From: Terramyces sp. JEL0728
Taxonomy: Eukaryota; Chytridiomycota; Chytridiomycetes; Rhizophydiales; Terramycetaceae
Length of the DNA: 64,000 bases
Reading direction: 5' to 3'
Assembly (NCBI GenBank): GCA_027603945.1
Contig: JADIIU010000059.1
Location: forward strand, 1 to 64,000
In this document: positions 1 to 61,500 of the stretch, in pieces
Position numbering within the stretch: the first letter of the stretch is position 1
How the letters are laid out: the number at the start of each line of letters is the position of its first letter
Position numbers and translations under genes: made by a program
The notes under the pieces: generated by a model
Databases searched by the model: none
What the model saw: only the letters and a program-made list of their open reading frames with translations
What the model was told of the DNA's origin: nothing

Positions 1-977
1 AAACTGTGTGAGATGGTTAGTTTTGTTAATCTCAGGTGAAGGAGCTGCTAGTGGAAGAATCAAACGTTCAGCCAGTCTGTTCTCCTGTTACAATTTGCGG
101 AGACATTCACGGACAATTTTATGACTTGCTAGAGTTATTTAGAGTGGGGGGAGAGATTCCAAACACCTCCTACATATTCATGGTACTTGAAATTAACCAA
201 AGGGTGATTTTGTGGACAGAGGATATTACAGCTTGGAAACATTTACATTATTACTTGCTCTCAAAGCCAGATACCCGGACAAGCTTACTTTGTTAAGAGG
301 GAATCACGAAAGTAGACAGATTACACAAGTATACGGTTTCTATGGTACGTTGCTATTAATTAAAGATGAATGCCAGACTAAATATGGGAATGCGAATGTA
401 TGGAAAGCATGTTGTAATGTATTTGACTTTATCACTCTTGCAGCTGTAAATATTCGTTAAATTAGATTGTTGATGGTCGTGTGCTTTGCGTACATGGTGG
501 ACTATCCCCAGATATCCGCACGCTGGACCAAATTCGAACCATTCAAAGATGCCAGGAAATTCCGCATGAAGGAGCATTCTGTGGTATCTATATTACTAAT
601 CGAGATTTAATGTGGTCTGACCCAGAAGATATCGACACTTGGGCAGTAAGTCCCAGAGGAGCCGGATGGCTGTTTGGACGCAAAGTAACACTTGAAGTAG
701 ATACTGTCTAACCTAGTTTTGCCAAGTTAATAATCTAACTTTGATTGCAAGAGCGCATCAACTAGTCCAAGAGGGCTACAAATTCATGTTTCCCGATGAC
801 AACCTAGTAACAGTATGGTCGGCGCCAAACTATTGTTATCGTTGTGGTAATGTTGCTTCAATATTGAATATCCAAAAGGACTTGAAAGTGACAGAGGAGA
901 ATTTCAAGATATTTTCCGCAGTACCGGATGATCAGCGAAATGTTCCAGCAAAAGCTACCACTCCATACTTTATGTGA
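1..977 (+). CDS. PPP6C: Ser/Thr protein phosphatase PP6-type catalytic subunit (5' partial)
   Basis: Catalytic subunit of a PP2A-family metallophosphatase, closest to PP6/Sit4, which removes phosphate from Ser/Thr in cell-cycle and signalling substrates. The gene enters from the left edge: the first five codons (KLCEM) end an upstream exon. Visible motifs are [43 protein letters not shown] and the C-terminal TPYFM, a variant of the methylatable PP2A-family tail. They join only after removing six introns at 16-35, 183-202, 345-365, 446-465, 584-604 and 697-716 (20-21 nt). The metal-binding Asp, His and Asn residues are all present. The PP6-like string [20 protein letters not shown] argues against PP4. 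The stop lies 33 bp before the next gene. Confidence 0.95.
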
Positions 978-1010
978 AAATAACTAATATAATATTTTTC
1001 GACATTTTTC

Positions 1011-2234
1011 ATGAAGCTCAGAGAAAACCAACAAACCCGGAAAATTTATGCTCTCCCAGGGTTAATACTTGCCGGAATAGTATTATACTTTTGCTTGGTC
1101 AGCAACCCATATCTCGAATTTAAAAGTAACCTTGAACGCGCGAAATGGATCATGTCTCGGAACCCAGTAGTAGATACTCACAATGATCTCCCCTGGAATT
1201 TAAAAACAAGGAATATTTCTAATGCAGACATAAGCGTCCTTCCAGATGGATTTGTAACCGACATCAAACGAATAAGAAAGGGGAAGCTGAGTGGTATTTT
1301 TTGGAGTGCATTCATTGAATGTACCATGGATTTGTCAAAACAGACGACAGCAGTGGTAGACACGCTTGTAATACTTGCTGATATAGAAACAAATTGATTT
1401 GATCAAGAGAATCGTTGATGAGAATGAAGATTTGGAATTTGCATACAGCAGTAGTGACATAAAACGTATCTTCAAGAAGGGAAAGATTGCATCCTTAATC
1501 GGAGTCGAGGGCGGCCATCAAATTGATGATTCGGTGGAGGTTTTGCGCACGTATTACGATCTTGGTGTGAGATACTTGACTCTGACTCACTTTTGTCCTA
1601 CTAATTGGGCTGATTCCAATGAAGTGGAAATCCATAATGGTCTAACTGATTTCGGAAAACAAATCGTGCAGGAAATGAACAGGTAAATGGCAATAACGCA
1701 GATTGGGCATGCTGGTCGACATTTCCCATGTTTCTCCAAAAGTTATGCGGGATGTTATTGCGATTTCGAAAGCACCGCTATTCGGCTCGCATTCTGCTAT
1801 TAAAGGAGCAAACCTGAAAAAGAATATGGTAATCTTGTTTAATACAGCCTGATGATGTCATCTTGGCAATGAAAGAAAAGGACGGAGTAGTGATGATCAA
1901 TTTCTTCAACGATATATATCCAGATGGCAGCCAAACTGATATTGACGAAGTGTTTGATAGATTCATGCATGTCATTAATCTAGTTGGGACAAACCACGTT
2001 GGATTGGGGTCTGATTTTGACGGACTGAGTAGCTATCCTAAAGGGCTGGAAGATGTCACTACCTACCCTGCCCTGGTTGCAAAATTCTATGACCACGGAT
2101 TCTCTGACAAGGATGTAATCAAAATCATTGGGGGAAACCTTCTGCGAGTCCTTGCAAAAACAGAAAAGGTTGCCAAGCAGGTTAAGTCCCAACAGCCTCT
2201 CATTCCTACTGTTTCTTTTAATAAACGCTGTTGA
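1011..2234 (+). CDS. Membrane dipeptidase (renal dipeptidase family, M19)
   Basis: Zinc metallopeptidase that hydrolyses dipeptides outside the cell or in the secretory pathway. About 388 aa after removal of three 19-nt introns (1368-1386, 1683-1701, 1829-1847). Residues about 15-32 form a hydrophobic signal or signal-anchor segment. Then come the metal-site motif DTHNDLPW, IGVEGGH, YLTLTHFC, VDISHVSP, an SHSA motif and GLGSDFDG, in the order known for mammalian DPEP1. The C-terminus ends basic (FNKRC) with no clear hydrophobic GPI signal, so anchoring probably relies on the N-terminal segment (inference). The start follows a short T-rich leader 33 bp after the phosphatase stop. Confidence 0.92.
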
Positions 2235-2281: not shown

Positions 2282-3923
2282 ATGGATCTTGTTGTGTCAG
2301 AAGAAGAGAAAAACCAGGATCCATATCAAGTATTTGAATTATTGGAAAAATTTGGATCAGGTTCGTATGGTACTGTATATAAGGCACTTCACAAATCCAG
2401 CGGGAGGATATGTGCAGTCAAACAAATTCCGGTGGAGAACGACTTGAACGATACCATAAGAGAAATCACCATTATGACTGGATTTGAATCTCAATACTTG
2501 GTCCACTTTTATGCCAGCTACTTGACTGACGAAGCACTGTGGATTGTGATGGAGCTGTGCGAGGCCGGATCAGTATCGGATGTGATGACAATCTGCGACA
2601 CTTGTTTATCGGAAGAAATGATTAGTTTGATTTGCTATGATGTGTTGAATGGGTTAAATTATTTACATGAAAAGAGAAAGATACATCGTGATATCAAAGC
2701 AGCGTAAAGATATTTTAAAGCAGAAACATACTGTTGAATTACAGAGGCGATGCAAAATTGGGAGATTTTGGAGTGACAGGACAGTTGGCAGATCATGCAG
2801 CAAAGCGGGTTACCTTTGTAGGAACTCCTTTTTGGATGGCGCCAGGTATTCGTCATTTGACAATAGAGGTTATTCAAGAAATCGGCCATGGTTACAAAGC
2901 GGATATTTGGTCACTGGGAATCACATGCATTGAGATGGCAGAGGGAAGGCCACCATACCACGATCTCCATCCTTTCAAGGCAATCTTTTTCATTCCCTCA
3001 AATCCACCACCAACATTTAGTACTTTTAATTTGATTACAGGCGACCCTGAACACTTTTCTCCAGAATTCAATGATTTCGTAAAGTGTTGTCTGCAGAAAA
3101 ATCCGAACGATCGGTTATCGGCTATTGAGCTGCTCAAAGTATTATAATTATAACGTAGCATCCATTCATAACAAAAAGCAAATCCCCCGAACACTCTGCC
3201 ATATTACAGCAACTAATAGATGATGCGTTATTCAGAATATCAAACGGATACCTGCAGCAACAAGTAAACAGCACTAACAAAGGAATCTGAAACTGAAACT
3301 GAGGATGAAGGAGATGAAGTGCGTGTTTTTGATGATGATGAAAACTATGATATGACTATCAAACAAAACCCGGTGTATAATATTCCCCAAGGGAATGACT
3401 ATGATGATACTGTAAAGCCAGAGACCTGTAACAAATATCTAATGCAGTTGCGGCTTTAAAGAAACAACAGCAGATATCAATCCCTCCAAAAGAAACCCAT
3501 TCGCAAGACCCAAGTGCAATGTCGCCCATGTCGCCAACTGAAGTATACCAGCAACATTCGCCAAAAAGTCCAACAAAACAGATAAGTTACGACCTCGAGC
3601 AAAGTCTTAATTTTGGCGTGCCATACAATGAGAGACCAATTTCGAGAAATATAATGGGAGACACTGCTCCTCAATCTAGTAACCCTGTATATTATACGCA
3701 AGAACGCCCGGCATCACAACTGTCTCGGGCAAGCAACAAGAGCAACAATGAACCTATTATTCAGTGGTCTCAGTATCTTCAGACCCTTTCAAAAGCAGAG
3801 TTGCAGGATTTCTTGGACATGATTGACCAAAGCGAATCCAAGCAGAAAGAAGCAATTTATAGCCAGTATCAGGAAAAACTCAAGCCAATATTGGACGGAA
3901 TTGAATATAAGCTGAAGCATTAA
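2282..3923 (+). CDS. Hippo/MST-type STE20 protein kinase with C-terminal SARAH domain
   Basis: STE20-family Ser/Thr kinase, MST1/2 (Hippo) class, about 506 aa. The N-terminal kinase domain shows [11 protein letters not shown] (P-loop), AVKQ (catalytic Lys), HRDIKAANIL (catalytic loop), DFG and GTPFWMAPE (activation segment). An acidic, low-complexity linker follows. The last about 55 residues (from IQWSQYLQ) match a SARAH coiled coil, the dimerisation module of Hippo kinases. Six introns: 2704-2723, 2846-2866, 3020-3040, 3139-3158, 3264-3282, 3428-3447. The stop TAA is fused to a poly(A) signal (TAATAAA at 3921-3927). It converges on the CBS-PB1 gene with 27 bp between stops. The kinase and SARAH regions are seen directly; Hippo-pathway function is inferred from the family. 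Confidence 0.93.
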
Positions 3924-3950: not shown

Positions 3951-5935
3951 TTATTTGATTCTAGCAATTTTAGTAATCATGTAGAACGCTACTACTACGA
4001 TACCGGCTGAAATAGCAACATTTACAGGAAGTGGAGCATCTTTGAGAGAATCAAAGATTGTATGAGGTGCTTCAGCAATTTGCTTGTTTTGGAGAGGGTA
4101 TGGCGAGGAGCTACGAAGATTTGGAGAAGCAGATCTAACAGAATTAGGGTTGGATAATAGCGGATTAGTGTTTGAAGGTGGATCTCCAAGATAAACCATC
4201 AAGCGGTTAGAACGAAGGGAAATAGACATTTGGACTGCTTCGTACACATCCTTGTCATTTTCTAACCCAACAATGTCACCATCTTCGTCGAGATAGCATA
4301 GCCGAGCACGAACGCCAGAAGCAGTGAGAATATCCAATGAATTATTGTTGTTTGCCTTATATCCGTGCTTGTATCCAGTTTTGGCACAAACGTTTTCGTA
4401 AACCTTTTCCAAAGAATCAAATGGGCAGGAGAATCTGTAGATTTTGCCTGATTTGTTAGTCATGTCCTTTAATTTGAAGGAGAACGAATCTTCCGCTGCC
4501 AAAGAATATCTTGAACTTGGTTCTGGGGACATGATACCTTCAGAGCGATGTAATTGTTTTTCCAACATTTGGGACCTGGAAAGTTCTACAGACCTATCTA
4601 TTGTTTGCGATCGGGAATAAGTAGACGACAGCCTCGAATCTGAAACTTGAGAAACTCTGTCCGACTCTACTTGGGAATGAGCAAATGTCGAGTTCCAAAA
4701 GTTGTTCCACATTGGTCCTTCTTCTCCCTGTTCAGCAGAATAGCCGCTCTTGGATATCTACTGTTAATGTATATTTACAAGGTAGTTGAGCATGGTAATG
4801 GTCAGCGTCATTACGTCAATTAGCCCTACTGGCACAGTGTTGTCGATGACAGGAAGGTGCAAGAAATGGCCAGCTAAATAAGAAACAAGTACCATGTAGT
4901 TTCTTTAGAGCATCCAGAATAGTAGCCTCAGAGGAAACATAGTCTGGGTGGGGAGTCTATCATTAAAAACTCTTACCATAACACGGATAACTGAAGTAGT
5001 ACCTGGATCAAGCGAAGCTGCAATAACTCTCAAGACAATGTCTTTGGTTGTGAAGATACCAGCAACTTTACCTTCGCCGTCTGGAGTACCAGTAACCAAT
5101 ACTGCAGTTCCATGGTAGGACTTCATTGCTTTTGCCGCATCTCGAACACTAGATTTTACACTGACGCCAGGAAAATCTCCAAATTCTTGATTAACCTTTG
5201 CAATAACAGACGCAACATCAGGACATTCGTGTTCATTGCGTAAAGTGTCAATTCTGTCAGAGTTTACAGTTCCCCTTCGTTCCAAGACATCCATGGCGCT
5301 GATAATACTCTGGTCTTCATTCACTTTACGTTCCAAATCATCTAGTCTCTCAAAAACGCACTTGGTAATATCCAACAACCCAACTACAGATTGCCCTTCT
5401 TCGTCGTCCCCATCGGATATAACCGGCAAGTGTCTAAACCGTCTAGAAACCATGATATTTAATGCTTCATTTCTACTTCCTTTGTCATAAACTGCAATTG
5501 GGTCTGCTGTCATTACGTCACTAACAACAGTAGTGCGAACGTCAAGTCCGTCAGCAACTACCCTGAAAGCAATATCTTTATCTGTTAGAATCCCGACCAA
5601 GTCGCCCTGTTCACTAACGACCAATACTGCGTCAATCCTTTTTGCAGCCATCAACTGGGCAGCTTGGATAATTTTTGCAGTTTCGATAATAATGATAGCC
5701 GGAGCAGGTTTAAGAGAAGAAACTGTCCCCCGTCTTGAATCTTTTGCTGGATTTATTGTATTTCGCTGCTTGGTTCTTTTCGACAGCTCTTGCTCGACCT
5801 TTGTCAATTATCGAATACCTTTTTTCTGATTTGGTCGTCTCTCCTTTTGTTCTTTGAACGCAAAACTTCATTTGCTCCTGCAGATCGTGTTGGAATACCA
5901 GTGGAGCTTAGGGACGAGCGTGGGTCTCCGTTCAT
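3951..5935 (-). CDS. Tail-anchored protein with four CBS motifs and a PB1 domain (Mug70-like)
   Basis: About 634 aa protein of a type found in fungi (S. pombe Mug70 class). Basic N-terminus, then four CBS motifs in two pairs (for example DAVLVVSEQGDLVGILTDKD, HLPVISDGDDEEGQSVVGLL, GTAVLVTGTPDGEGKVAGIF and HLPVIDNTVPVGLIDV). They likely bind adenosyl nucleotides. A PB1-like domain follows (GKIYRFSCPFDSLEKVYENV ... LCYLDEDGDIVGLENDKDV). The C-terminus is a single hydrophobic helix ending KIARIK, typical of a tail anchor. Four introns: 5799-5818, 4957-4976, 4874-4892, 4758-4778. The ATG at 5935 is chosen because the exon 1 frame joins the CBS frame only through the 20-nt intron at 5799. The in vivo role is unknown. 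Confidence 0.88.
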
Positions 5936-6189: not shown

Positions 6190-6582
6190 ATGTTAGTGCC
6201 GAATGTGCAATATAAGTTGGATTTCCCATGGACTCGTTACATCTTTGTAGTCAATGCACAAGTATGGATATCGGCGGATAAAAGTAAAGCGCCTTTAGTT
6301 CAGATCGATTGGCTAATCTCTTTGCTCATGATGGACGAAAACTGCCAGAACGGATCCACAAACTCGAGCCTGGTACATGCAAAGAGAAAAAAGTGTGGAT
6401 TTCATTATATTACTAAGGACAAGTACTGGTGTGCATTTGGAATTGTATCCAATCTAAAAGACTTTGGGCATCTCCTCGGAAAGTTCTTTGGTGCTCAAAA
6501 AGGCAACTCTCCGAAGGCGCTCGAATATAAGAAGCAAAAAAATTGGGTTCACCTATGGCAGAGAAAGTCGCCAAAACAGTGA
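6190..6582 (+). CDS. Hypothetical protein, exon structure unresolved
   Basis: The frame is open from about 6151 to 6582, longer than expected by chance, but I could not build a convincing full gene. The first ATG is at 6190. The stretch around VQIDWLISLL loosely resembles the end of a BRCT domain; this is weak. Upstream, a second frame (ATG at 6060 to about 6166) might be an earlier exon, but no 19-25 nt intron joins the two cleanly. A possible 20-nt intron at 6484-6503 would give an earlier stop at 6528-6530, 24 bp before the next ATG, but it lacks a good branch point. Function unknown. Confidence 0.3.
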   Translation: MLVPNVQYKLDFPWTRYIFVVNAQVWISADKSKAPLVQIDWLISLLMMDENCQNGSTNSSLVHAKRKKCGFHYITKDKYWCAFGIVSNLKDFGHLLGKFFGAQKGNSPKALEYKKQKNWVHLWQRKSPKQ

Positions 6583-8586
6583 TGGATGCTGAAAAAGAAA
6601 TTGTAGGAGTGGAACAAGAATTCAATCTGCGGTCAAAGTTTACTGTCAAAGGTAGACAAGTCCGCGTTGTCAAGGAAGAAGAAGATATTGTTTCCAACAG
6701 GTTTGGAAGGGATGAACAAGTGCTCCTAGGTTCTAAAAAGCACTTGGAAAGTGTCAAAGCTGCCATTTCAGAAATTGACAACGACGTTCGAAGAATCCAA
6801 AGGCAGTCCAAGACCGATAGCACCAGTGTGCGGCTACTGAGCGCTGCAAAGATAGACAAACTTTCAAAGAAAAGGAAAGAGTTTGAAGATACTTTGGATT
6901 TCCTGTTGGACAATTTCAAGTACCTCGACGAAGAAAAGGAAGCTGAGGAAGACGAAAGCGAAATGCTTGAAGAAGATGATGACAACAATACCTTTGTGGT
7001 TACAAAAACCTCTGTTGCAGAATCCAACAAAGTCCATGATATTAGAATGTAATGTCGGAATTAATTGTAGTGTTAGAAAATGGACTGCTGGGCCTCAGAT
7101 CCGCCAATATTACATTGGGGACGATTTATATAGACAGCCAGGAGAAGTAGAAGTTCAATGGTTCGAGTAATTCGCTATTAATCATAGACTATTTCTTGAT
7201 TTGATTTATGTGGGTGGTGTTGCAAAGTGCGGTGAGCACATTGCCGAACAAAGTACATTTGCAAAGCCATTTGACTATCACTCGTTTGCGGAATTCACTC
7301 TAGTATTGATTCCGCTGCTCTTCCACTGGAACCATCTGTGTCTGCTGAACAACGCCATCTACCACAAGGGATATATCAGAAAAATCTTCAACTTTATCTT
7401 TATCGTGGCAGTGCTGTTTATGACTATTTCCATTTCATCTGCGTTTGAGCCGGAACTGGAAAAGAACACTGGGGCGATATTCTTGACGTTCCATGTTATT
7501 TCAATTTTTTTGATGGAAGCTTACACTACATATTCAATGTATAAATGTATTCCGGGTATTGGATCCTCTGCATTCTTGCATTTGTTTTGGGTAACATTAC
7601 AATCTGGAATGTACATGTCTATCTGGGCCTTCCCTCCTTTGGAAGAGGGTGCAGATCTGGTGGACGCTGAGCATCGCATTATGCTAAGAAAGTATATTTG
7701 GACGGCCTCGCTCATTTTTGAATATGCCAGTAGATTTGGGGTTGAATACTGGAAAAACCACTTTAAACAGCCACGCATTGCCGTCAATGTGGAACACTAT
7801 CATGAACGTTTCGGCGTGTTTATCGTGTTTATTATGGGCGAATTAGTTGTCAACCTATTCAAGAAAACGTACACACTAGAATACCAAGGGAAATTTTTGG
7901 CTTACTTGTTGGTTGTGTTTGTCGTATCGATGAACATCTTTTTCCTATACTTTAGATCGGAAGGTAACGAATACTTTGTCCATGCTCTGCGACGTAAGGC
8001 GCCAAGGTGGGCAACTATTTGGAGATTCATTCAATTACCATTTTCCGTTGCAATAGTCGGGTTAGGAGCTGCTAATGCCGCCATCCTACAAATCAGTGAA
8101 CTGAGAACCCTTGGCCCTAAAGATCAAGGGTTGCCTGACTGCGGATTTTTTACGGCTAGTGAATTGGGTACCACTAGCTTTGACAACTCTACCAGTTCGG
8201 GTAATAGCTCCTGTTCCGAGCCAGTGGTTGGATTACACATGCCTGATGTCTCAATTGAACTCCAAGATGTATTCTTTGCTTGTTTTGCTGGAGTTTATGC
8301 GTGTCTTGCTGTATTTGGTATGGTTCACAAAGAAAAGATCAGAGATGGACATCATCCATTGGTGCCGCTCAAGTATAGAGTTATGCACAGAATATTTTGG
8401 GCTGTTGTGTTTACTGCTGCAATCTGGCTGGTTCCTGCTATGAGATTTGGTGATAAGGAAACTCACCAGTTCAAATTGCTGTACTATGCTCTTGGAATTA
8501 CTAGCTTCTCTGTAGCCTTTGAGGAATTAGGAAGATATACCGTCAAAATTAAATCTGGCAAAGTTGACATTCTGAAGAGAGAATGA
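6555..8586 (+). CDS. LtrA-domain multi-pass membrane protein with N-terminal coiled-coil extension
   Basis: The C-terminal about 500 residues are a multi-pass membrane protein of the low-temperature-requirement A (LtrA) family. It begins with the family-like segment WFELFLDLIYVGGVAKCGEH and shows about eight or nine hydrophobic helices; bacterial and fungal members have no settled function. The 21-nt intron at 7167-7187 is needed to make this segment. A second candidate intron (7049-7070, 22 nt, good consensus) joins in frame to an upstream exon that starts at ATG 6555. That exon encodes about 165 residues of Glu/Lys-rich coiled coil ending in an acidic run. The spliced length (662 codons plus stop) is a multiple of three. 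The alternative is that LtrA starts at ATG 7036 (509 aa) and the coiled-coil frame is a separate gene ending at 7052. The LtrA part is sure; the fusion is less so. Confidence 0.72.
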
Positions 8587-8629: not shown

Positions 8630-9560
8630 TTATTCAAGATTAACCATAGGCACATCATCATGCTTTGACCGGGTGGTTAAATAGGAAGTGGATTTAGCAG
8701 CCCCAGTGTAAGCACCTTTAATAATTTTGGCAACAGCATCTTTTGACAAGTATGCGTAAGCTTGACCTCTTGGACAGGTAGGAGAGTAGCAAATTGTACC
8801 AGGAGTGCAGGAAGGAGAATAGCAATCAATTTTTTGATGCTGGCCCTCTTCGATCAGAGCTGCAGCTCCCCATTTAGCATACCCTGCCAAACCACCCAAC
8901 AAAGTAGGAACTCCAGTTGCTGCAACTACACTCCCACCTAGTCTGATTCCTTTGGAGGCAATAGAGCCTAAACCCTGGCGTATTGAATGCGCAGTAGACT
9001 TGGTAGCATCCACCGCCCTTGGCGCAAAATCTAAAAACCCAGAATAATCCAACAATGAAGTTCCAGCAAGAGAGATTTGTCCTACTGCGTTTCTGATTGT
9101 AGAGTCATACCAGCTCCCAATAATTGGCATTTGCGAAATCAAATCTTGCGCAACTTGAATTTCAATTTGATCCACAATTCTAAAGAGGCCGTCATCGCAA
9201 TGTTCCAATTGTAACCTGAGGATATAATGCATATTGATTGAAATCGTTCCACCAAGAGCTTTTGGTTTCAAAATTTGCTGAACATCTGCCATTATTAACT
9301 GTTGGTCATTGTCGTAGCCTGTTTATTAATATTGAATTACTGATTGACCCGATAATGAGACCAAGCTCCATATTGTTCTTGGCCAAGGAGTTGTAGCTGC
9401 GAATAATTTCTTCCCTTCCTTGCAGAGCCAAATATGGATTCTGGAGATGGCAGCCCTCTTCATAAATTTTCTCAATAGCTTCTCTTTGTTTTTCCTGATC
9501 GATGCTGAGAATCTCTGTAAAGTATTCCCTAACTTGCAGAGTTAAATTTTCCTTGTCCAT
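8630..9560 (-). CDS. SigF-like NTF2-family protein with Cys-rich C-terminus
   Basis: About 302 aa. The N-terminal half has the NTF2/SnoaL-like fold pattern seen in fungal SigF-like proteins (GCHLQNPYLALQGREEIIRS, then ISINMHYILRLQLEHCDDG and FRIVDQIEIQV). One 22-nt intron at 9319-9340 joins the two frames. The C-terminal part has a Gly/Ala-rich amphipathic stretch and a paired Cys motif (CYSPSC...CYSPTCPRG) that might bind metal or sit at a membrane. Biochemical role unknown. ATG 9560 is the first in frame. It is divergent from the surface-protein gene at 9705 (144 bp between starts). Confidence 0.72.
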
Positions 9561-11171: not shown

Positions 11172-11178
11172 ATTTATT
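11167..11178. terminator. Palindromic bidirectional poly(A) signal containing both stop codons
   Basis: The palindrome AATAAATTTATT reads AATAAA on both strands. The TAA of the plus-strand surface-protein gene (11169-11171) and the TAA of the minus-strand ALG3 gene (11174-11176) both lie inside it. Each transcript must therefore be cleaved within the coding region of its neighbour. The motif is seen directly; cleavage sites are inferred. Confidence 0.6.
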
Positions 11179-14728: not shown

Positions 14729-15498
<770 letters not shown>

Positions 15499-15567: not shown

Positions 15568-18505
<2,938 letters not shown>

Positions 18506-25280: not shown

Positions 25281-25314
25281 TAAAAATCTCGCGTGGATCT
25301 TTTTTTTTTTAAAA

Positions 25315-42793: not shown

Positions 42794-42801
42794 AAAATTT
42801 A

Positions 42802-49500: not shown

Positions 49501-52500
49501 ATGTCTGAAGAAAAAAAGGGAGACAAGAAGGACGAAGAAGCCGTTGTCGTACCTGTCGACGCCAGAGTAATGTGGTTCGAAGACAAGGTATGCGCGGCCC
49601 TCAAAGTCAAATCGGATAAATTTAAGAAAATGACAGTGAATGGAGAATATGTGTATTTTAAGCTTGATGTTAGGGATATCATTTATCAATTCCTTGACAA
49701 GGAACCAAACACAATCCTATTCTATTTAAACCAAAAGGAAGAAATCGTTCCAGCAGTTAAATTTCCCTCTCAGATGAAGAGGAAAGCTATCTATTACCTC
49801 AAAAGAAGATTAGGCGCGCAGATAACTGAGAAACTCGAACAAGAGCTGATTTTGGGCGACCTGTCTGCAAATCCTTTAGAGTTTTTGTCGGCACTGCTCG
49901 AGGAAGTATATCTACCAATCCTCACCAATACAAAGAACTTGGAAAGCTGGCCAGAAGTAGTAGCAAGTGACGTCTTGAGACATTTTCATATGTTAAATGG
50001 TGCCGTATATGTGATTTCAGGAAAAGCCAAGGTAACTATCATCTAAGCTCAGGGTAAAACGATGCTACCCCTTCCACATGGTGCTAAACTCAACGCTGAG
50101 AACGATAAAAGCCTACTGCACACACTTGAAACCGCAGTCATTGACTGGACCCATCAAATCAAGGAAGTTATCAAGAGCAGCTCAGCAACTCCTTTAGAAG
50201 AAGGACTAAATCCTGGACCAATGGTTGAAATTGACTTTTGGACCGCAAAAGCCGCCAATTTAAAATCTATTCACCAACAGTTGACGGATCAAAAAATTCA
50301 AAAGATCTCGCAAGTACTGAAAGCAAGCAACAGTACCTATTACCCTGCCTTCCAACTGATCTTTGACGAGGTTGTATTTGGTAAATGCTGATTCATTTTA
50401 GCTTTGGAAGAAGCCAGTGATATCAGCACATTCTTGAAAGCTCTACGACCAAAGATCGAGTCAGTAGAAGGGGTAAACGAATTCATTGAATTGGCCCAGA
50501 TATTCCCAGGATTAATGAAAACCATATTATTGATCTGGAAATGTTCAAAGCACTACAATACACCTACTAGATTGGCTGTATTGCTACAAGAAATCGGCAA
50601 CGACATTATTGACGCAGCAAGAAACCACATCCAGCCTGCCGAGTTATTTACCAGTGAGCCAGAAGAAGCGGCCGAGAGATTACGTGTAGTTTTGAAAGTC
50701 TGCAATGCTTTTAAAGCTACCTACTTTGAATTTAAAGCACAAACTGCACACACTGCAAGACCATGGAACTTTGATTCAAAGCTAGTGTTTTCGCGGCTTG
50801 ACACTTTTTTGATCCGTGTTCAGCAAATCCTTGACCTGTTTGACACTATCATGGAATTTAACAGACTGGAAAAGATTGAAATTGGCGGCACCAAGGTAAT
50901 ATCAACATAACCCCAGGGCAAAATCCTCAGTTCTCAAGTTGCACAGATTTTTACCGAATTTACATCCGCTTTGCGACAATTCGCTGGGATCAAGTATGAT
51001 ATTTTGGATATTGCTTCTCCAGAGTTTACCGTTGACAACAGCAAATTCAAAGAACTCATCACAGACTTGGATAAACGCATCAGTACTATTTTGAATCAAG
51101 CATTTGATGACTGCTCGGGCTTGTACTCGTGCTTCAGACTGCTAGAATCATTTGGAGGCTTATTAAACCGCCCAAACATTATATGCGACTTTGAACAAAA
51201 GTATTTTGAACTCTTGCGTATCTATTCAAAAGATTTAGAAGACGTAAGCATCATCTTTGTTCGAAACAAAGAAAATTGCCCAATTCATTACAATATGGCA
51301 CCTGTAACTGGCGCCGTTGCATGGGTCCATGAATTGAAAGATCGAATTGGAAAAGCAATGGAAAAATTGAAAACCGTACTGCCTCTTTAATTGTAGCTGA
51401 ATCATTCTGTTATGCAATCGGAAGAAGCTGCTGTTGTCAAAACAAAATACAATGAAATTTATGCAGCGTTAGAATCGTATGAACAATCAATCTTTTCCAA
51501 ATGGAGTGCGTCTATTACCGACGAATCTGAGGCTAATTTACAAAAACCAATTTTGATTCGGGCTGGCGGTTTGCTCCAAGTCAATTTCGATCCAAAAGTT
51601 GTCGCACTTCTTCGAGAAGTCAAATATTTTGGAGCTCTTACTGTACAGCCCCCAGAAGCAGCTGTAGATATTTATTCTAAATCTGAAACTTTTAGAAAGT
51701 ACATCTTTTCCCTGGATAATATTTCAAACACTTACAATTCTATCATTAAAGGCGTGCTCGATGTCGAACGGCCTTTAATTCAAAGGAAAGTTGATGAAAT
51801 TGACTCTCAAATAGAAATTGGGATGACTCAGTTAAACTGGAAGTCTCCAGATATCGATAGCTATATCGATAAAATATCTTCTTCTGTAGGCAACCTTTCA
51901 TCTATTTTACAAGTCATGAAGAACAATCTCAATCAAATCAACAAAATGCTCAAGCAATGGTCTGCCAATCCTTTGATTGAGCGCAAAGATGGCAAAAAGC
52001 TTCTTAATCTGGATGAAAAGGAAGCAAAACTTGCTGCTGCTTCAGAAATTATCAAGAAAGACGGCCAATCCCTTCTTCAATTGGTATTGCAAACTCGAAC
52101 TACAGTGGAAGCCGAGGAAGAATCCGAGGCATGGCTAAACTACCGAGAATTTATTGACGGTATCGTAAAGAAGGGATTCCGCGCTGTCATCAAAACAAGT
52201 TTGGATTTCATCTATCAAAACATAGACAAAGAGAGAGTCAGCGATTTTGGTCCTCTTATTGAAGCAAAATTGGAGCTGGAGCACGAAACGCTTACTTTCA
52301 CGCCTTCCATGGATGAAGACGCTCCAGGATCCCTCAAGATGATAGTTGAAGATTTGATCGAGGACATTTTCACCGTGTCATCATTGATGCCTCGTGTTGC
52401 CCCTCTTGAAATCAAAGCAAAGGCAAAGCCAACAACCGCTGATTCTAACGACGAACACCATAAAGATGATAAAAATGATAAGGCAATGGAGGAATTCGCC

Positions 52501-55500
52501 AACTCTACCTATTTGGCCGAAATGCGCCAGGATGAGACATTGGATAATCTTCGCGTTGGTATTGTTGAAAGGGTTTCAGTCATTATTGAAAACTGCCTTC
52601 AGTTCAAAGAAGGATTTGATCAATACTCTTACTTGTGGACCGAAAACCGCCAACAGTATATGAAAACCTTTTTGGCTCCACCAAAGAATTTAGATGAACC
52701 TGAAAAGGAACCCGAAACGCAAGCACCAAGTGTTCAACTGGAGAAATTTGAATCCGAAATTCGTAAATTTGAAGCCATACACAAAACTGTAATGGCGTTT
52801 GATCCCGAAGTTGTATTTAATGGCTGGTTCAGAGTAGATGTTCGTCCATTTAAGCAAGCCCTTAATGTTACTGTCAAGAAATGGAGTTTCACTTTGACAA
52901 AATACCTATTCGATGATACCATAAGCACGTTGAATGAATTAAGCCAATTCACCAAGGAAAACAAAAATGGGCTGAATGTCAAAATTGATGAAGGAGACTA
53001 TGATGGGTTGATTGGCGCGATGGGGCTACTGCACGCAATTAAACATAGACAAAACGCAATCGACACAATGTTCGAGCCTCTTCGAAAAACTGTCAATCTT
53101 CTTCGTCAATTTGGTGTTGAGTTTGACGAAAGCATTCACAAGTTGCTAAACGATCTTCCAGAACAATGGTCCGATGTAAAGAAGCTTTCTGTTTCCATCA
53201 AAGATCAGGTAGCACCTCTGCAAGCAAAAGAAGTGGATGTTTTGCAGCAAAAGTGCAACAGATTTGACATGAAAAACCACAACTTCCGCGAAGAGTTTAG
53301 AAAAAAAGCGCCATTTAAATTTGAAATTGGCCCTGCAACCGCTTACACATTGATTGATACGAATCATTTTGATGTTGTGGCTATGGAAACCGAAGCAATT
53401 GCTTTGAAAAAGTCTTGCGAACTGTTTGAACTTGCAGTCCCAACTTACCGACAACTGTCCGACTGCAGAAGAGATATTAGTATGCTCAAATCCATTTGGG
53501 ACATTGTTGGTTTGGTAACATTCATGTTCGGCCAATGGAAAACGACACTGTGGACTGAAATTGACACAGATGCAATGGAAAATAGGTGCAGAGAACTGTC
53601 AAAAGAGCTACGAAAAATGGACAAGGAAATCAAAGGCTGGGATGTTTACACTGGTCTTGACCAAACTGTTAAAGATATGGTTACAAGTTTGCGAGCTGTT
53701 GGAGAGCTTAGAAGCAATGCAATTCGAGAACGTCATTGGAAGCAATTGATGAAAACCACTGGCGTTACCTTTGTTTTGACAAAAGACATGAAGTTCCAAG
53801 ATCTCTTGAGTCTCCAATTGCACAAATTTGAAGATGATGTAAAAGTTATTGTAGACAGGGCTACCAAAGAATTAGCCATGGAAAAGGTTTTGAACGATTT
53901 AGACAAAACTTGGTCTGCTATGGAATTTACGTATGAAGCGCACGAAGCAGCAAAGACTGTCCTACTGAGAAGCTCCGAAGAATTAATCGAAACCCTCGAA
54001 GATAACCAAGTAATGCTACAAACAATGATGACATCTAAATACGTCGCACACTTTGAAGAACAGATTACAAAATGGCAAATAGCATTGTCCACCGTCGACT
54101 CTGTAATTGTTTTGTGGTTAGAAGTTCAACAAACATGGTCGCACTTGGAAAATATTTTCATTGGTTCAGAAGACATTAGAGTGCAGCTGCCAGAAGACTC
54201 AAAGAGATTTGATGGAATCGATGCTGACTACAAGGTTTTGATGAAGGAGGCACAAAAAATACCAAACTGCGTCAAATGTTGTACCAGAGAAGGGCTGTAT
54301 GATCAACTAGAACATTTGCAAGGGCAACTTGCTCTCTGCGAAAAATCATTGGCTGAATATCTTGAAACCAAACGACTGGCATTCCCACGTTTCTATTTCG
54401 TATCCGCTTCTGATCTGTTGGATATTCTCGCAAAAGGAAACCAGCCGTTGGCTGTAGCCGAACATCTCCCAAAATTATTTGACAACATTGCTAGACTAGA
54501 GTTTTCAAAGAGTGCAAATGGAGAGCCAACTAAAAGCGCGATTGGTATGTATTCCCTGCAAGAAGAATATGTAGAGTTTAAAGATCCATGTGATTGTACC
54601 GGGGCTGTCGAAAATTGGTTGAACAGATTGATCAAATGCATGCGAGACACTTTGCGAAACCTACTAGGAGAATCTGTTGCATCATACGAAGAAAAACCAA
54701 GAGAGCAGTGGATTTTCGACTTCCCAGCTCAGATTGTACTTGCAGGGTCTCAAATTTGGTGGACCACCGAAGTCAATGCCGCATTTGCAAGATTGGAAGA
54801 AGGTTATGAAAACTCTTTGAAGGACTACTACAAGAAACAAGTCAATCAGCTAACTGCTCTTATTGGATTGATTCAAGGGGAACTGAAGAGAGGAGACCGT
54901 CAAATGATCATGTCTCTGTGTACTTTGGATGTTCACGCCAGAGATATGGTAACCAAACTAATTGTGGAAAAAGCTGAAAATTCGCAGTGTTTTACCTGGC
55001 AATCCCAGTTAAGATTGAGATGGGATGATGTACAAGAAAATGACTGCTTTATTAACATCTGTGATGCGGTTTTCCGTTACAACTACGAATACCTGGGAAA
55101 TACTCCACGTTTGGTCATTACTGCCCTCACCGACAGATGTTACATTACGCTTACACAGTCTCTTCACTTAATTATGGGTGGTGCTCCTGCTGGGCCTGCT
55201 GGAACCGGTAAGACTGAGACAGTAAAGGATTTGGGTAAAGCGTTGGCTATCATGGTTTACGTTTTCAATTGTTCAGAGCAAATGGATTATAAATCTATCG
55301 GAAACATCTTCAAAGGTCTCGCACAATCTGGTACCTGGGGCTGCTTCGACGAATTCAATAGAATTGCTGTCGAAGTGCTTTCGGTCGTAGCTACACAAGT
55401 AAAATCTATTCAAGATGCCCTCCGAGCGAAAAAGAAGAGATTTATCTTCCAAGGAGAGGAAATTGGTATAGTCCGTACTGTGGGTGAATGGATTACCATG

Positions 55501-58500
55501 AATCCAGGTAAAATGTGATTAAAAACTAGGTTATGCCGGCAGAACAGAATTGCCAGAAAACATCAAGGCACTATTCAGACCATGTTCCATGTGTGTGCCC
55601 AACTTGGAGTTAATCTGCGAAATTATGTTGATGGCCGAAGGATTCATAGAAGCAAGCTCCCTTGCAAGGAAATTCAACACCTTGTACAAACTAAATAGAG
55701 AATTGTTGTCCAAGCAAGATCATTATGACTGGGGTCTAAGGGCCATCAAATCTGTACTAGTCGTCGCAGGCAGTTTGAAACGCCAAGATCCAAACGTGCC
55801 AGAAGAACATGTCCTCATGAGAGCGCTTCGTGATTTCAACTTGCCAAAAATCGTTACGGACGACTTGCAAGTTTTCCACGGTCTAATTGGTGATCTGTTC
55901 CCAAAATGCGAAGTTGCAAGAAAAAGGGACGAAAAACTTGAAACAGAAATCAAAAAGGCTACAGTTGAAAGTGGACTTCAGGCTGAAGAAATATTTGTGC
56001 TAAAAGTTGTGCAGCTAGAGGAACTGCTTGCTGTCAGACATTGTGTATTCATTATTGGCAACAGCGGCACCGGCAAATCGCAAATTTGGAAGATCTTGTG
56101 CAAAACATATCAAAATATGGGCAGAAAATGTACTGCTTGGGATCTAAATCCAAAGGCAGTCAGCACTGATGACCTTTATGGCTGTATCAACCCGGCTACC
56201 AGAGAATGGAAGGACGGGCTTTTCTCCTCCATCTTAAGAGAAATGGCTAGCGCACAAGGCACAGACCCCAAGTGGATGATCCTTGACGGTGATATTGATC
56301 CAAACTGGATTGAAAGTTTGAACACGGTCATGGATGACAACAAGATGTTGACGCTTGCTTCTAACGAACGTATTCCAGTCAAACCGCACATGCGTTTGAT
56401 TTTCGAAATTGCAAACTTAAAATACGCTACACCAGCTACAGTTTCTAGAGCTGGTATACTATATTTAAATACCACCGATCTAGGATGGAACCCATACGTT
56501 CAATCTTGGCTAGAAAAGCGTGAAGATGCTGCTGAAAAGACCAATTTATCTGTTCTGTTTGACAGATATGTGAACCCATGCCTGGATGTTCTAAGATCTG
56601 GAAAGTTTAAAATGGCGTTTGTTGAAGAATTTTCAATGGTTATGGCGCTTTGTAATATCCTTGAAGGTTTGTTGACACCTCAAAATACTCCAAAAGGATG
56701 CGAAAAAGAGTGGTTTGAAATCTATTTTGTGTTCTCAGCTGTATGGGCATTTGGCGGATGCATCTACCAAGACCAGCTTGTCGATCACAGAAATGAATTC
56801 AGCAAATGGTGGAACAATGAATTTAAAGTAGTAAAATTCCCACCAAGCGGAACAATCTTTGACTACTATATCGAACAAGAAACCAAAAGATTTGTTCCTT
56901 GGACAGACAGAGTACCAGTTTTTGAATTTGACTCGGAGGTTCCACTTCAAGCAGTGCTAGTCCACACTCCTGAAACCACAAGATTAAGATACTTTATCGA
57001 TTTGCTTGCTGATAATGGAAAGCCTGTGTTGCTTATTGGTAGCGCAGGTGGTGGGAAAACCGTGTTAATGCAAGACAAGCTGAATTCATATGGTGACGAC
57101 AAGCTATGCATCAATGTTCCATTCAACTTCTATACAACTTCGACTTCGTTACAGCTTGTTCTTGAAAAACCACTTGAAAAGAAGGCCGGTAAGAACTATG
57201 GGCCGCCTGGCAATAGAAAAATTATTTACTTCTTGGATGATCTTAATATGCCCGAAGTCGACAAGTACGGTACTGCAAGTCCCCATACCCTTTTGAGACA
57301 GCATCTGGATTATCGCCATTGGTACGACAGACAAAAACTGACTCTCAAAGAAATCCACAACTGCCAATACGTCGCGTGTATGAATCCAACTGCTGGTTCC
57401 TTTGTAATAGATACAAGATTACAAAGACACTTTGCCTCATTCGTAGTCAATTTCCCAGGCGTTGACTCTTTGCAAAGCATTTACCTGCAAATATTGAACG
57501 GGCACTTGCGCTCCTTTACCCCTTCAGTCCAAAAGATAAGCGAACGAGTTGTTGCAGCAGCTCTTTCTTTGCACAAAAAAGTGACATCTACCTTCCTACC
57601 AACTGCAATCAAGTTCCATTATGTATTTAACTTGCGTGACCTCAGTAACATCTTCCAAGGAATCCTATTTTCATCCAAAGAAAAAATCAAGGACAATATC
57701 GAGTTTGTCCGATTATTACTTCACGAAAGTACGAGAACTTATGGGGACAAGTTGGTGGATGAAAGCGACCGTGTGATGTTGCTGAAAGTCCAAGAGGAAA
57801 TTATCAAGAAAAGCTTTGATGACATGGACCAGACAGCAATTAAACAAGAGCCAATTCTTTTCACCCACTTTTGCAACGGTATGGGCGAGCCAAAGTACGG
57901 TGCGGTGAAAGACTGGGTAGTTCTGAAAAAGCTTCTGGACGAAGCTCAAACGCAGTATGAAGAATCCAACGCTGCAATGGGACTGGTTCTATTCGAAGAT
58001 GCCATGAGCCACATTTGCAGAATCAACAGGATCTTAGAATCTCCAAGAGGAAATGCGCTACTAGTTGGGGTTGGTGGTAGCGGTAAACAATCACTTTCGA
58101 GAATGGCGGCCTTTATTTCGGGGATGGAGGTCTTCCAAATCACTTTAAAGAAAGGATATTCTGTTGCAGATTTGAAAGTAGATTTGGCAGCTCTATATGT
58201 AAAAACTGGCCAAAAAAAGCAGTCAATCATGTTCTTGTTGACCGACTCGCAGATTGCAGACGAGAAGTTCCTAGTTCTTATAAATGATTTGCTGGCGTCT
58301 GGCAACATCCCAGGTCTCTTCCCAGATGAAGATGTGGATAACATTATTTCATCAATGCGCGGGGAGGCAAAAACATTAGGTCTACAAGATACCCGAGAAA
58401 TATGTTGGGATATTTTCATTAGATTTGTCAGAAAGAACCTCAAAGTAGTATTGTGCTTTTCTCCTGTCGGAAATGCTCTGAGATCCCGATGCAGAAAGTT

Positions 58501-61500
58501 CCCAGCAATTGTCAATTGCACAATCATTGATTGGTTCCAAGAATGGCCCGAAGAAGCGCTGACTTCTGTTGCAAATCGATTTATAGCACCATTTGAACTA
58601 GTACCAGACAAGCTGAAGGTTCCAGTTACCAAGTTTATGTCTTTTGCGCATATTGGGGTAAATACAGTGTCCAAAAAGTACTTGGCAAATGAAAAACGGT
58701 ACAACTACACAACTCCAAAGTCATTCCTAGCGCTGATTTCAATCTATCAAGACATGCTCGAAAAGAAGGCTCTCGAGCTGACAAAGAGTATGGACCGTTT
58801 AGAAAACGGTTTGACCAAATTGCAGGCTACAGCAGGACAAGTAGATGACCTGAAGGCAAAGTTGGCAACTCAAGAAGTAGAATTGAAAGCAAAGAACGAA
58901 GAAGCCAATCTGTTGATTGAAAGAGTCGCGGTTGATACTGAAAGGGTCAACAAAGAGAAGGCGATTGCAGCAGGTGAAGAAATCAAAGTTGATTTGGTGA
59001 CCAAAGAAGTCGGAGAGAAACGTGCGTCTTGTGAAAAAGATTTGGCAGCTGCTGAACCTGCGTTGGCAGCCGCAGCGGCAGCGTTGAATACCCTCAACAA
59101 AGCCAACTTGACAGAATTAAAATCTTTTGGTTCCCCTTCAGATGAAGTCAAGAATGTCACAGCAGCTGTTATGGTTTTGCTCAGCCCTGCCGGTAAAATA
59201 GCAAAGGACAGAAGTTGGAAAGCGTCCAAGAATATGATGGCAAAAGTAGATTCTTTCTTGGATCAGCTGATCAACTTTGACAAAGAAAATATTGACGCAT
59301 CCAACTTGGAAGCAATCAAGCCATATTTAGCTGACCCTAACTTTAACGAAAACTTTATTAGGAGCAAATCTTCTGCTGCTGCGTCACTTTGTGCTTGGGT
59401 GGTCAACATTGTTATGTTCTATCACGTTTTCTGTGATGTAGAGCCAAAGAGAAAGTCTCTTGAAGCTGCAAACGCTGAATTAGCCTCCTCACAAGCGAGA
59501 CTTAAGGAAATTCAAGGCAAGATCACTGATTTAGACAACAATCTTGCAGATCTCAAGGCCAAGTTCGAGAAGGCTACGGCAGATAAGCTGCGTTGTGAAG
59601 AAGAAGCCCAAAGCACCCAAGTTACAATTGAATTGGCCAACAGACTAGTCAACGGATTGGCATCTGAAAAGGTTCGTTGGAGTGAAGCAGTAGCCAAATT
59701 CAAAGAACAAGAAAAAACGCTTGCTGGTGATGTTTTGCTATCGGCCGCATTCGTTTCGTATGTTGGCGGTTTCACCAAAAGATATAGAGAAGAAATGATT
59801 GAAAACTGGTTCAAGTATTTGAAAGATGAAAACAATCCATTTAAAATACCACTATCAGATAACCTGGACCCGCTTAATATTATGACAAATGCCGCGGAAA
59901 TTGCCAGATGGAATAATGAAGGTCTGCCTACAGACAGAGTATCCTTGGAAAATGCAACTATGGTAACCAGCTGTAAGCGATGGCCATTAATTATTGATCC
60001 TCAGCTACAAGGTGTTACCTGGATTAAAAATCGGGAAGGCAGCAAACTAAAGACTGTGAGACTTGGAGCAAAAGGATACTTGGATGCCATAGAAAAAGCA
60101 GTGTCGTCCGGCGATGTAGTTTTGATTGAAGATATCGCTGAATCGATCGATGCTGTGCTAAATCCTTTACTTGGCCGTGAAACTATCAAAAAGGGAAGAT
60201 ATATCAAAATGGGGGATAAGGAAGTAGAATATGATCCATCTTTCAGATTAATCTTGCAGACAAGATTGGCAAACCCCCACTATCCACCAGAAATTCAAGC
60301 ACAAACAACGCTGATCAATTTCACTGTGACATTGCTCGGTTTGGAGGATCAACTGCTTGCCGACGTTGTGAACATTGAAAGACCTGATTTGGAGAAAACC
60401 AAGGCTGAATTGACAAAGCAACAAAATGAATTCAAAATTAGATTACTGGAACTAGAAGATGCCTTGCTCTCTAGACTCTCTGCAGCCGAAGGAAATTTCC
60501 TTGGCGACACTGCCTTGGTTGAAAACTTGGAAATTACTAAAGTCACCGCAATTGATATTGAACAGAAAGTGGAAGAGGCAAAGAAAACTGAAAAGAAAAT
60601 CAACGAAACTAGAGAACTGTACCGACCTGTAGCTGCTAGATCTTCTCTTTTGTACTTTTTACTCAATGACTTGTGGCAGATCCACCCAATGTATCAATAC
60701 TCACTTAATGCATTCAAAGTAGTGTTTAAAAATGCAATCAACAGGGCAGAATCGTCTGAAGAATTGAAGGAAAGAGTGCGCAACCTAATCGACTCTATTA
60801 CCTACATGGTATTTGTATATACCACAAGAGGGCTGTTTGAAAGGGACAAGCTCATTTTCACTGCGCAGATGACCTTCCAAATCCTGCTTGCTGCGCAGGA
60901 CATTGACTTTGTTGAACTTGATTTCTTGCTGAGAGGTCCGCGTATGATTGGCGTGGTCAGCACATTGGATTGGCTATCTCAGGTTTCTTGGGGTATGATC
61001 AAATCGCTCTCAAATCTTGAAGTGTTTAGAACACTGGCATCCGACATTGAAGGCTCTTCGAAACAATGGAAAAAGTACTGTGAAAATGAGATTCCAGAAA
61101 ACGAAAAATTACCACAGGTATCTAAAAACTCACAATAGGAATGGAAAAACAAGAACCCTCTTCAAAAGATGTGTATTCTAAGATGTCTAAGACCCGACAG
61201 AATGACCTACGCAGTAAAGAACTTTATCGGACTAAAAATGGGAGACAGATACATTATGTCTGCTCGGGTGCCAATTGCGCAAAGTTTCTTGGAATCTGGC
61301 CCAGCTACGCCAATCTTCTTTATTTTGTCTCCTGGTGTAGACCCAGTCAAAGAAGTGGAACTGCTAGGTAAATCGCATGGTGTATCGGAAGACTTGGGCA
61401 ATTTCCACAACGTATCTCTTGGACAAGGACAGGAAGTTATTGCAGAACAAAAGCTAGAGATTGCATACAAGAATGGCGGATGGGTGATGCTGGAAAATAT

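What the first reader, a model, noticed from the sequence alone, without database searches (positions are those of the whole stretch)
1..61138. Genome-wide use of 19-22 nt spliceosomal introns
About 110 introns reconstructed across roughly 30 genes are almost all 19-22 nt (extremes 23-25 and one 34). Typical form is GTA..., a TAAY element, 3-5 nt, then AG. After removal every complete multi-exon gene has a length divisible by three, and conserved motifs are restored, for example in PP6, ALG3, RecQ, NDC80 and PARN. Introns this small are known from a few ciliates and nucleomorphs. Finding them throughout a flagellated fungus-like genome suggests an unusually adapted spliceosome.
Basis: partly seen in the sequence, partly recalled or inferred. 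Interest (0 to 1): 0.92.

Follow-up and report, generated by a model that had tools for sequence, protein, structure and literature searches.

The report
Chytrid genome with only tiny introns
A chytrid fungus appears to interrupt its genes almost only with introns of 19-22 letters, much shorter than usual, which makes it a good organism for asking how small an intron the splicing machine can handle.

Summary
Confirmed, and general across the 264 kb examined. A gene finder told only "GT...AG, length 12-100" put 142 of 240 introns at 19-22 nt; 11 control dinucleotide pairs put 5-19 of 173-200 there. A refined model gives 101 introns in 28 window genes (one judged a false join), 98 of them 19-22 nt. 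Alignments expose five more, stop-free, 21-nt introns. The genome is the public assembly of Terramyces sp. JEL0728, a chytrid. A model capped at 26 nt, with GC-AG and GT-TG allowed, scores higher than one allowing 150 nt. The branch A lies 13-15 nt from the donor and 5-6 nt before the intron end. Two longer introns look like two tiny introns back to back and one like a nested pair. A GT-TG intron in Sec23 is fixed by alignment. U2, U5, SF1 and U2AF65 look conventional; U1 and U6 were not found, which may be an assembly gap. The "unusually adapted spliceosome" is thus inferred, not shown. No RNA evidence was available. Ten paper searches listed no description of this in a fungus.

The parts
1..977 (+). 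PP6/PP2A-type phosphatase (partial); introns 16-35, 183-202, 446-465, 697-716 (20 nt each) plus two stop-free 21-nt introns 345-365 and 584-604
   Evidence: alignment to PP2A shows two exact 7-residue inserts at the 21-nt introns
1011..2234 (+). membrane dipeptidase-like gene (name by eye); introns 1368-1386, 1683-1701, 1829-1847 (19 nt)
   Evidence: gene model; the tiny-only model joins it to the next gene through 2211-2230, judged a false join
2282..3923 (+). MST/Ste20 kinase; introns 2704-2723, 3139-3158, 3264-3282, 3428-3447 plus stop-free 21-nt introns 2846-2866 and 3020-3040
   Evidence: two exact 7-residue inserts against STK3 at the 21-nt introns
3951..5935 (-). CBS/PB1-domain gene (name by eye); introns 5799-5818, 4957-4976, 4874-4892, 4758-4778
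6555..8586 (+). membrane protein gene (by eye); introns 7049-7070, 7167-7187
8630..9560 (-). gene with intron 9319-9340 (22 nt)
11174..12525 (-). ALG3-like mannosyltransferase (name by eye); introns 12361-12380, 11896-11915, 11552-11571, 11455-11474
   Evidence: low coding score, 8
12616..14656 (-). transporter-like gene (by eye); introns 14495-14513, 14374-14394, 14320-14340, 14208-14226, 13974-13993, 13825-13844, 13685-13704, 13273-13292
14729..15498 (-). isopentenyl-diphosphate isomerase; introns 15361-15380, 15251-15272, 15127-15146 plus stop-free 21-nt intron 14968-14988
   Evidence: one exact 7-residue insert against IDI1, otherwise ungapped
15568..18505 (-). RecQ helicase; introns 17162-17181, 16824-16843, 16620-16641, 16123-16142, 15820-15840; likely stop-free 21-nt intron 16716-16736 (restores [12 protein letters not shown], by eye), possible 17443-17463
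   Evidence: Pfam DEAD, Helicase_C, RQC, RecQ_Zn_bind, HRDC
18703..19579 (+). gene with introns 19060-19079, 19292-19310, 19387-19405
19615..20126 (+). DUF866-like gene (name by eye); intron 19957-19976
20320..22419 (+). gene with introns 20469-20490, 20648-20668, 20876-20898 (23 nt)
22468..23738 (+). gene with intron 22895-22914
23796..24261 (-). gene with intron 24082-24103 (22 nt; low coding score)
24285..26262 (+). two CCCH zinc-finger copies (by eye), joined or separate; introns 25254-25272 and 25532-25552
26314..27602 (+). ERGIC-like gene (name by eye); introns 26447-26467, 26741-26760, 27217-27238, 27389-27408
27706..28803 (+). aquaporin-like gene (name by eye); introns 27910-27931, 28407-28428, 28503-28527 (25 nt, longest single intron kept in the window)
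30673..31626 (-). low-scoring gene model with introns 31272-31292, 31080-31098, 30971-30992, 30794-30812
   Evidence: weak
31535..32395 (+). gene with introns 31788-31810, 31963-31984 (low coding score)
32403..33476 (-). N2227-like methyltransferase (name by eye); intron 32937-32957
33650..34779 (+). choline/ethanolamine kinase-like copy 1 (by eye); introns 33950-33970, 34380-34399, 34660-34680
35145..36320 (+). choline/ethanolamine kinase-like copy 2 (by eye); introns 35469-35488, 35595-35614, 35918-35937, 36201-36221
36458..37493 (+). AMPK-gamma-like CBS protein (name by eye); introns 36675-36694, 37177-37196
37807..40380 (+). SMARCAD1/Fft3-type remodeller; introns 38753-38772, 38773-38792, 38901-38920, 39134-39152, 39515-39536, 39681-39700, 40157-40176
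   Evidence: alignment to SMARCAD1 over query residues 169-786
38753..38792 (+). two complete 20-nt introns back to back with a zero-length exon between (GTAATCAATTGCTAATCCAG, GTTGATTCGTTTTAATTTAG)
   Evidence: removing all 40 nt gives [12 protein letters not shown], ungapped against SMARCAD1
41498..42793 (+). MT-A70/METTL-like gene (name by eye); introns 41800-41819, 42179-42197, 42272-42290, 42360-42379, 42527-42546, 42620-42638
42527..42546 (+). 20-nt GC-AG intron GCAATTTATATTTAATCTAG (end type judged by eye, not aligned)
42802..44647 (-). NDC80; introns 44423-44441, 44106-44124, 43677-43696, 43288-43308
   Evidence: Pfam Ndc80_HEC 171 bits and NDC80_loop
47622..49315 (-). PARN; introns 48914-48933, 48671-48690, 48534-48552, 48211-48232, 47972-47991
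   Evidence: the public protein P0001 agrees at four of five junctions; the Boothiomyces model has a 7-residue insert at the fifth
49501..63076 (+). 4483-aa dynein-heavy-chain-like gene (name by eye; its first exon alone gave no Pfam match); introns 50032-50052, 50381-50401, 50896-50916, 51376-51396, 55508-55529, 61118-61138

Best explanation
The segments are U2-type spliceosomal introns, and 19-22 nt (19-25 at the extremes) is effectively the only intron size class of Terramyces sp. JEL0728. Each intron typically has a GTA donor, a YTAAY branch site whose A sits 13-15 nt after the first G, and a 3' end 5-6 nt beyond that A, usually TAG or CAG. Shown: sequence architecture, sampling over 18 contigs, protein collinearity, and conventional U2, U5, SF1 and U2AF65. 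Inferred: the intron itself acts as the recognition unit (intron definition). SF1 and U2 find the branch site, and the fixed spacing, rather than a polypyrimidine tract or the first AG, sets the 3' end. The spliceosome must then tolerate a 5'SS-branch distance about a quarter of the ~52 nt estimated for the human B complex. Longer insertions are tolerated only as two unit-size introns, removed one after the other.
For: Motif-free detection peaks at 19-22 nt: 142 of 240, against 19 of 184 in the control pair with most such introns (Fisher p ~1e-26). Refined: 387 introns over window plus 200 kb, 378 of them 19-22 nt. The tiny-only model out-scores the long-allowed one, 8961 to 8668. Spacing: A at index 13-15 in 328 of 341, 5-6 nt after A in 299 of 341. 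Alignments to PP2A, IDI1, PARN, SMARCAD1, STK3 and Sec23. The public Terramyces PARN protein agrees with four of my five junctions. U2 140 bits, U5 86 bits, SF1-HH 113 bits, U2AF_lg 334 bits. The GT-TG intron in Sec23 restores RFLQP with no gap, while an AG ending 3 nt past the branch A is skipped; the end used lies 7 nt past it (sequence).
Against: No transcript reads were available. Only 264 kb of 15.0 Mb was modelled (349.9 kb, partly overlapping). U1 and U6 were not identified, so the 5' splice-site half of the machine is unseen. The intron and codon models were trained on this genome, and the 8961 versus 8668 comparison is not nested, because the tiny-only model also had two extra end types. 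In the any-length run 31 of 372 introns lay outside 19-22 nt: five of 23 nt and 26 others, of which I read 16 and did not look at 10 one by one. Sequential removal and a distance-set 3' end rest on three composites, one of them alignment-tested, and one aligned TG intron.
Confidence: 0.85

Rival explanations
1. Artefact: the segments are frame repairs chosen by the model (or reader) to mend sequencing errors, pseudogenes or non-coding gaps.
For: Length divisible by three is forced by the method, and control dinucleotide pairs also let the model place 173-200 'introns', so a part of any such set is spurious.
Against: Only GT-AG gives a strong length peak. The branch motif and fixed spacing emerge unasked. 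Excision restores known proteins, with no gap at nearly all junctions checked.
Confidence: 0.02
2. The segments are removed, but not by the spliceosome, or are skipped at translation or eliminated as DNA.
For: The human B complex is estimated to need ~52 nt between 5'SS and branch site (PMC6692369, passages), and U1 and U6 were not found.
Against: GT-AG ends, a YTAAY branch site that fits U2 GUAGUA, and U2, U5, SF1 and U2AF65 are all present. Even shorter introns, 16-17 nt, are transcript-supported in mikrocytids (PMC10245619, passages).
Confidence: 0.03
3. Tiny introns dominate, but a real minority of ordinary introns (27-150 nt) also exists.
For: The any-length model kept 22 introns over 26 nt, and 9 of the 10 unread outliers belong to them or to the very short ones.
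Against: Of the 16 outliers read, two are single introns of 24 and 25 nt, three are composites of tiny introns, and the rest resolve into GT-TG or GC-AG tiny introns or false joins of genes. The tiny-only model scores higher.
Confidence: 0.12

Closest known systems
Bigelowiella natans (chlorarachniophyte) nucleomorph introns, 18-21 nt (PMC6461891, section 24 read)
   Same: same size range, GT ends, about 3 introns/kb there against 1.8/kb of coding sequence here, U2 with a canonical branch-binding site
   Different: those introns lack a clear donor or branch motif and the nucleomorph U1 and U5 are shortened; here the branch motif and spacing are strong, U5 is full length, and the genome is a 15 Mb fungal one
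Stentor coeruleus 15-16 nt introns (PMC9505925, passages)
   Same: one narrow size class, GUA donor, branch A at a fixed position, U2-type machinery with U2AF retained
   Different: 15-16 nt with no strong branch consensus, and all five snRNAs identified; here 19-22 nt with YTAAY, and U1/U6 not found
Mikrocytid introns, 16-17 nt (PMC10245619, passages)
   Same: nearly invariant tiny length with conserved sequence
   Different: parasites with few introns (224) and a very reduced spliceosome; here of the order of 20,000 introns by extrapolation, with SF1 and U2AF65 present
Paramecium and Nyctotherus ~25 nt introns (PMC5014332, passages)
   Same: ultra-short introns as the only class
   Different: Paramecium shows strong selection on 3n introns, which are rich in in-frame stops; here at most a weak tendency (p ~0.02)
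Fixed branch-AG spacing in Yarrowia, Trichomonas and Giardia (PMC2483917, passages)
   Same: branch site anchored a few nt before the 3' end, no polypyrimidine tract
   Different: the passages tie such anchoring to intron-poor species; this genome is intron-rich
Stwintrons of filamentous fungi (recalled, no call)
   Same: two introns that must be removed one after the other
   Different: classical stwintrons have an internal intron that splits a splice element of the outer one; here two of three cases lie simply back to back

Membership tests
U2-type spliceosomal introns | GT-AG ends with a U2-complementary branch site | tested here: met
   329 of 342 GT-AG; branch motif YTAAY; U2 carries GUAGUA
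U2-type spliceosomal introns | host encodes U1, U2, U4, U5 and U6 | tested here: inconclusive
   U2 and U5 found; U1 and U6 not found; U4 not searched
U2-type spliceosomal introns | removed from mRNA through a lariat | not testable with these tools
   no RNA data
Genomes with a single tiny-intron class (nucleomorph, Stentor, mikrocytid) | narrow length class under about 26 nt, genome-wide | tested here: met
   378 of 387 at 19-22 nt over window plus 200 kb, under a model capped at 26 nt; 341 of 372 when lengths to 150 were allowed. Sample is 264 kb of 15.0 Mb
Genomes with a single tiny-intron class (nucleomorph, Stentor, mikrocytid) | transcript-confirmed splicing | not testable with these tools
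   no reads; public protein models agree in part
Nucleomorph-type machinery | shortened U1 and U5 | tested here: not met
   U5 matches the full Rfam model, 115 nt, 85.9 bits; U1 not found, so that half is open
Paramecium-type translational surveillance of introns | deficit of stop-free 3n introns | tested here: inconclusive
   21-nt introns are under-represented in phase 1 (p 0.02), but stop-free ones are harder to detect
Stwintrons | inner intron interrupts a splice element of the outer intron | tested here: inconclusive
   L019:3736-3777 decomposes into a 22-nt inner and a 20-nt outer intron, but the inner one lies between donor and branch site; the definition is recalled

The most novel reading that the evidence does not exclude
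Terramyces has a ruler-type spliceosome: it excises only units of about 19-23 nt, chooses the 3' end by distance from the branch A (so that TG can serve when AG is misplaced), and can remove a larger insertion only when it is made of unit-size introns, back to back or nested, excised one after the other.
Probability: 0.4. Interest if true: 0.9.

Novelty: new variant of a known kind. Interest (0 to 1): 0.74.

Why it matters
Tiny-only intron sets are known from nucleomorphs, some ciliates and a reduced parasite group. Here the same regime sits in a fungus that keeps SF1 and U2AF65, so tiny introns need neither loss of those factors nor ciliate ancestry. The donor-branch spacing is about a quarter of what the human B complex is estimated to need, which makes the minimum-intron problem testable in a fungus. 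It also shows why public gene models of these chytrids lose exons: the Sec23 models of both Terramyces and Boothiomyces drop the same conserved stretch after a TG-ending intron.

Tried and rejected
Structured 'hairpin' introns: L013:5189-5231 and L025:2767-2819 looked like long introns with a hairpin that shortens the path, but they seem to lie between two fused genes and are more likely terminators (read by eye). U6: one 3-mismatch match lies in sequence without U6 features. Thirteen places matching a degenerate core, against eight for the reversed control pattern, gave no Rfam match. Nine places matching a 5' pattern with two mismatches, two for the control, could not be read because their DNA was not cut out. 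Two 27-bit Rfam matches (gathering score 44) look like chance. The Rfam searches scored only 48 of 1328 (U6) and 41 of 233 (U1) first-look candidates, and the U1 answer says that it does not show absence. Rfam at gathering scores found nothing in the window or in L010-L016; a plasmid search with the first 20 kb found nothing. Inserts in other Sec23 proteins as a sign of retained tiny introns gave nothing clear outside Terramycetaceae. Nested introns: 0 in each of six controls, 1 with GT-AG 19-22 (L039 and L045 left out, and some loci overlap). Non-canonical ends: GT-TG 6, all others 1-3 each; GC-AG stands at 2, no more than noise by count alone. Of eight GT-TG calls one (L012) is fixed by alignment; two (L027:4762-4781, 2859-2878) look right by the leucine-rich-repeat pattern, by eye; one (window 2211-2230) is a false join; four were not tested. 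Of five GC-AG calls, two (window 42527, L022:9461) look right by eye, one lies at a gene boundary, two are untested. The SF1 gene model contains a doubtful 15-nt intron. SSU rRNA was asked for ten times and never answered; the host was identified from proteins instead.
Full report
What was tested. The window is contig C59:1-64000 of a 15.0 Mb, 231-contig assembly. I fetched 20 further stretches of 10 kb from 17 contigs and wrote a Viterbi gene finder with codon statistics from 44 long open frames.

Chance control. With introns defined only as GT...AG, flat length 12-100 and no motif, window plus sample gave 240 introns, 142 at 19-22 nt; no other length had more than 5. Eleven other end pairs gave 173-200 'introns' with 5-19 at 19-22 nt. 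Unasked, 139 of 149 introns of 18-24 nt began GTA, and a TAAY-like element stood just before the end. So the length class is real and not a frame-repair artefact, although some single calls must be spurious.

Refined picture. After training donor, branch and acceptor models, 341 of 372 introns were 19-22 nt with lengths allowed to 150. Of the other 31, five are 23 nt; I read 16 of the remaining 26. Two are single introns of 24 and 25 nt, three are composites, and the rest dissolve into false joins of neighbouring genes or GC-AG or GT-TG tiny introns. Ten were not looked at one by one. A model restricted to 17-26 nt, with GC-AG and GT-TG at a penalty, scored 8961 against 8668 for the any-length GT-AG model. 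The two are not nested, since the first has extra end types. It yields 387 introns, 378 of them 19-22 nt: 101 in 28 of 34 window models, and 1.79 introns per kb of coding sequence in genes scoring 15 or more. By simple proportion the genome would hold of the order of 20,000.

Anatomy. Among 341 introns of 18-24 nt, the branch A lies at index 13, 14 or 15 from the donor G in 328, with 5 or 6 nt after it in 299. Position +3 is A in 312 of 341; +5 is T in 154 and G in only 55. The stretch between donor and branch is T-rich (41%, against 27% in coding sequence). There is no room for a polypyrimidine tract between branch and 3' end.

Protein evidence. PP6, IDI1, PARN, SMARCAD1 and STK3/MST alignments run across the excised positions; small gaps lie near some, for instance in the SMARCAD1 homologue near residue 548. 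Each of the five PARN junctions is ungapped within 4 residues against at least one of two relatives, and all seven Sec23 junctions against both relatives tried. The alignments also show exact 7-residue inserts, two in PP6, one in IDI1 and two in MST; each is a 21-nt intron-like stretch without an in-frame stop that the finder had left in. In 191 kb of coding sequence 18 retained 21-nt candidates stand against 1-4 at the other lengths from 18 to 24 nt and up to 7 at longer ones, so stop-free 21-nt introns are under-called. Corrected for that, 21-nt introns are somewhat poor in phase 1, the phase that mostly escapes stops (p 0.02), a weak hint of surveillance at most.

Host. The PARN query matches HDV01_006157 of Terramyces sp. 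JEL0728, identical over the shared part apart from one 9-residue gap and a fusion with the neighbouring homeobox gene in the public model. The Terramyces Sec23 record lies on a contig of 520,119 bases, the exact length of C1. Boothiomyces macroporosus is close (79% in PARN, 87% in Sec23). Its PARN model has a 7-residue insert at the site of the fifth Terramyces intron, so the regime is probably shared within Terramycetaceae. The two public Terramyces proteins that I saw already agree with many of these introns.

Unusual members. (a) Window 38753-38792 and L014:5234-5277 are two introns back to back with a zero-length exon (20+20, 21+23); in genes scoring 15 or more no exon of 1-18 nt was called between two introns. 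The first lies in the ATP-binding motif (recalled) of the SMARCAD1 homologue, and removal of all 40 nt gives an ungapped match. The second was not tested by alignment. (b) L019:3736-3777 splits into a 22-nt intron inside a 20-nt one; six control definitions gave none; also not aligned. (c) In Sec23 the intron L012:8461-8481 ends in TG. With it removed, GYARFLQPVAECEYNL aligns without a gap to Globomyces and Batrachochytrium, whereas the public Terramyces and Boothiomyces models both drop the same 55 residues there. This suggests the TG acceptor is shared. An AG ending 3 nt after the branch A is not used; the TG end lies 7 nt after it, which fits a 3' end set by distance.

Machinery. U2 is full length with GUGUAGUA; U5 is full length. 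SF1 has its helix-hairpin, KH and zinc-knuckle domains. U2AF65 passes its family cut-off after splicing (334 against 310 bits) and aligns to human U2AF65. U1 was not found by Rfam or pattern, and U6 not by Rfam or four patterns; nine weak matches of the last pattern could not be read. I draw no conclusion.

Mechanism. The human B complex is estimated to need about 52 nt between 5'SS and branch site (PMC6692369, passages), and efficient U2AF-dependent splicing is said to need at least eight pyrimidines, with SPF45 taking over on short tracts (PMC8363638, passages). Neither condition can hold here. I infer intron definition with branch recognition first, early hand-over of the 5' end, and a distance-set 3' end. 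SPF45 and Smu1/RED are natural candidates for the adaptation; I did not search for them.

Comparison and novelty. Known tiny-only sets are nucleomorphs (18-21 nt, PMC6461891), Stentor (15-16, PMC9505925), mikrocytids (16-17, PMC10245619) and Paramecium/Nyctotherus (~25, PMC5014332); for these I saw passages, and section 24 of the first. A survey of 644 fungal genomes gives Cryptococcus (mean 63 bp) as its example of short introns (PMC8476143, passages). Ten searches of the open-access library listed no paper that, by title and abstract start, describes tiny introns in chytrids. Long hit lists were cut, subscription papers and preprints are not covered, and two chytrid genome papers searched for 'intron' gave nothing on length (PMC5364385, PMC13391722).

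Limits. No RNA; 264 kb of 15 Mb modelled; gene names marked 'by eye' come from no call; of three composites one is alignment-tested, and of eight GT-TG calls one.

Noticed in passing
G000 whole assembly: U1 and U6, the two snRNAs that pair with the 5' splice site (recalled), were not found although U2 and U5 were.
   Followed up: partly
L012:6754-9095: The public Sec23 models of Terramyces and Boothiomyces both lack the 55 residues after the GT-TG intron, so the annotation loses a conserved stretch there.
   Followed up: yes
window 46255-49315: The public model HDV01_006157 fuses PARN with the neighbouring homeobox gene on the same strand.
   Followed up: no
G000:C18, C3, C26, C42: Kinase matches with equal or nearly equal scores recur 29-62 kb apart within one contig, which suggests large segmental duplications or joined haplotypes.
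   Followed up: no
window 33650-36320 and 24285-26262: Tandem duplicate pairs: two choline/ethanolamine kinase-like genes and two CCCH zinc-finger stretches side by side (read by eye).
   Followed up: no
L013:5189-5231 and L025:2767-2819: Hairpin-like stretches at what look like gene boundaries, possibly terminators.
   Followed up: partly
L030:1501-1606 and L031:1501-1605: Two near-identical loci on different contigs score 27 bits as U6 and contain ACAGAGA; probably a repeat with a chance match.
   Followed up: partly
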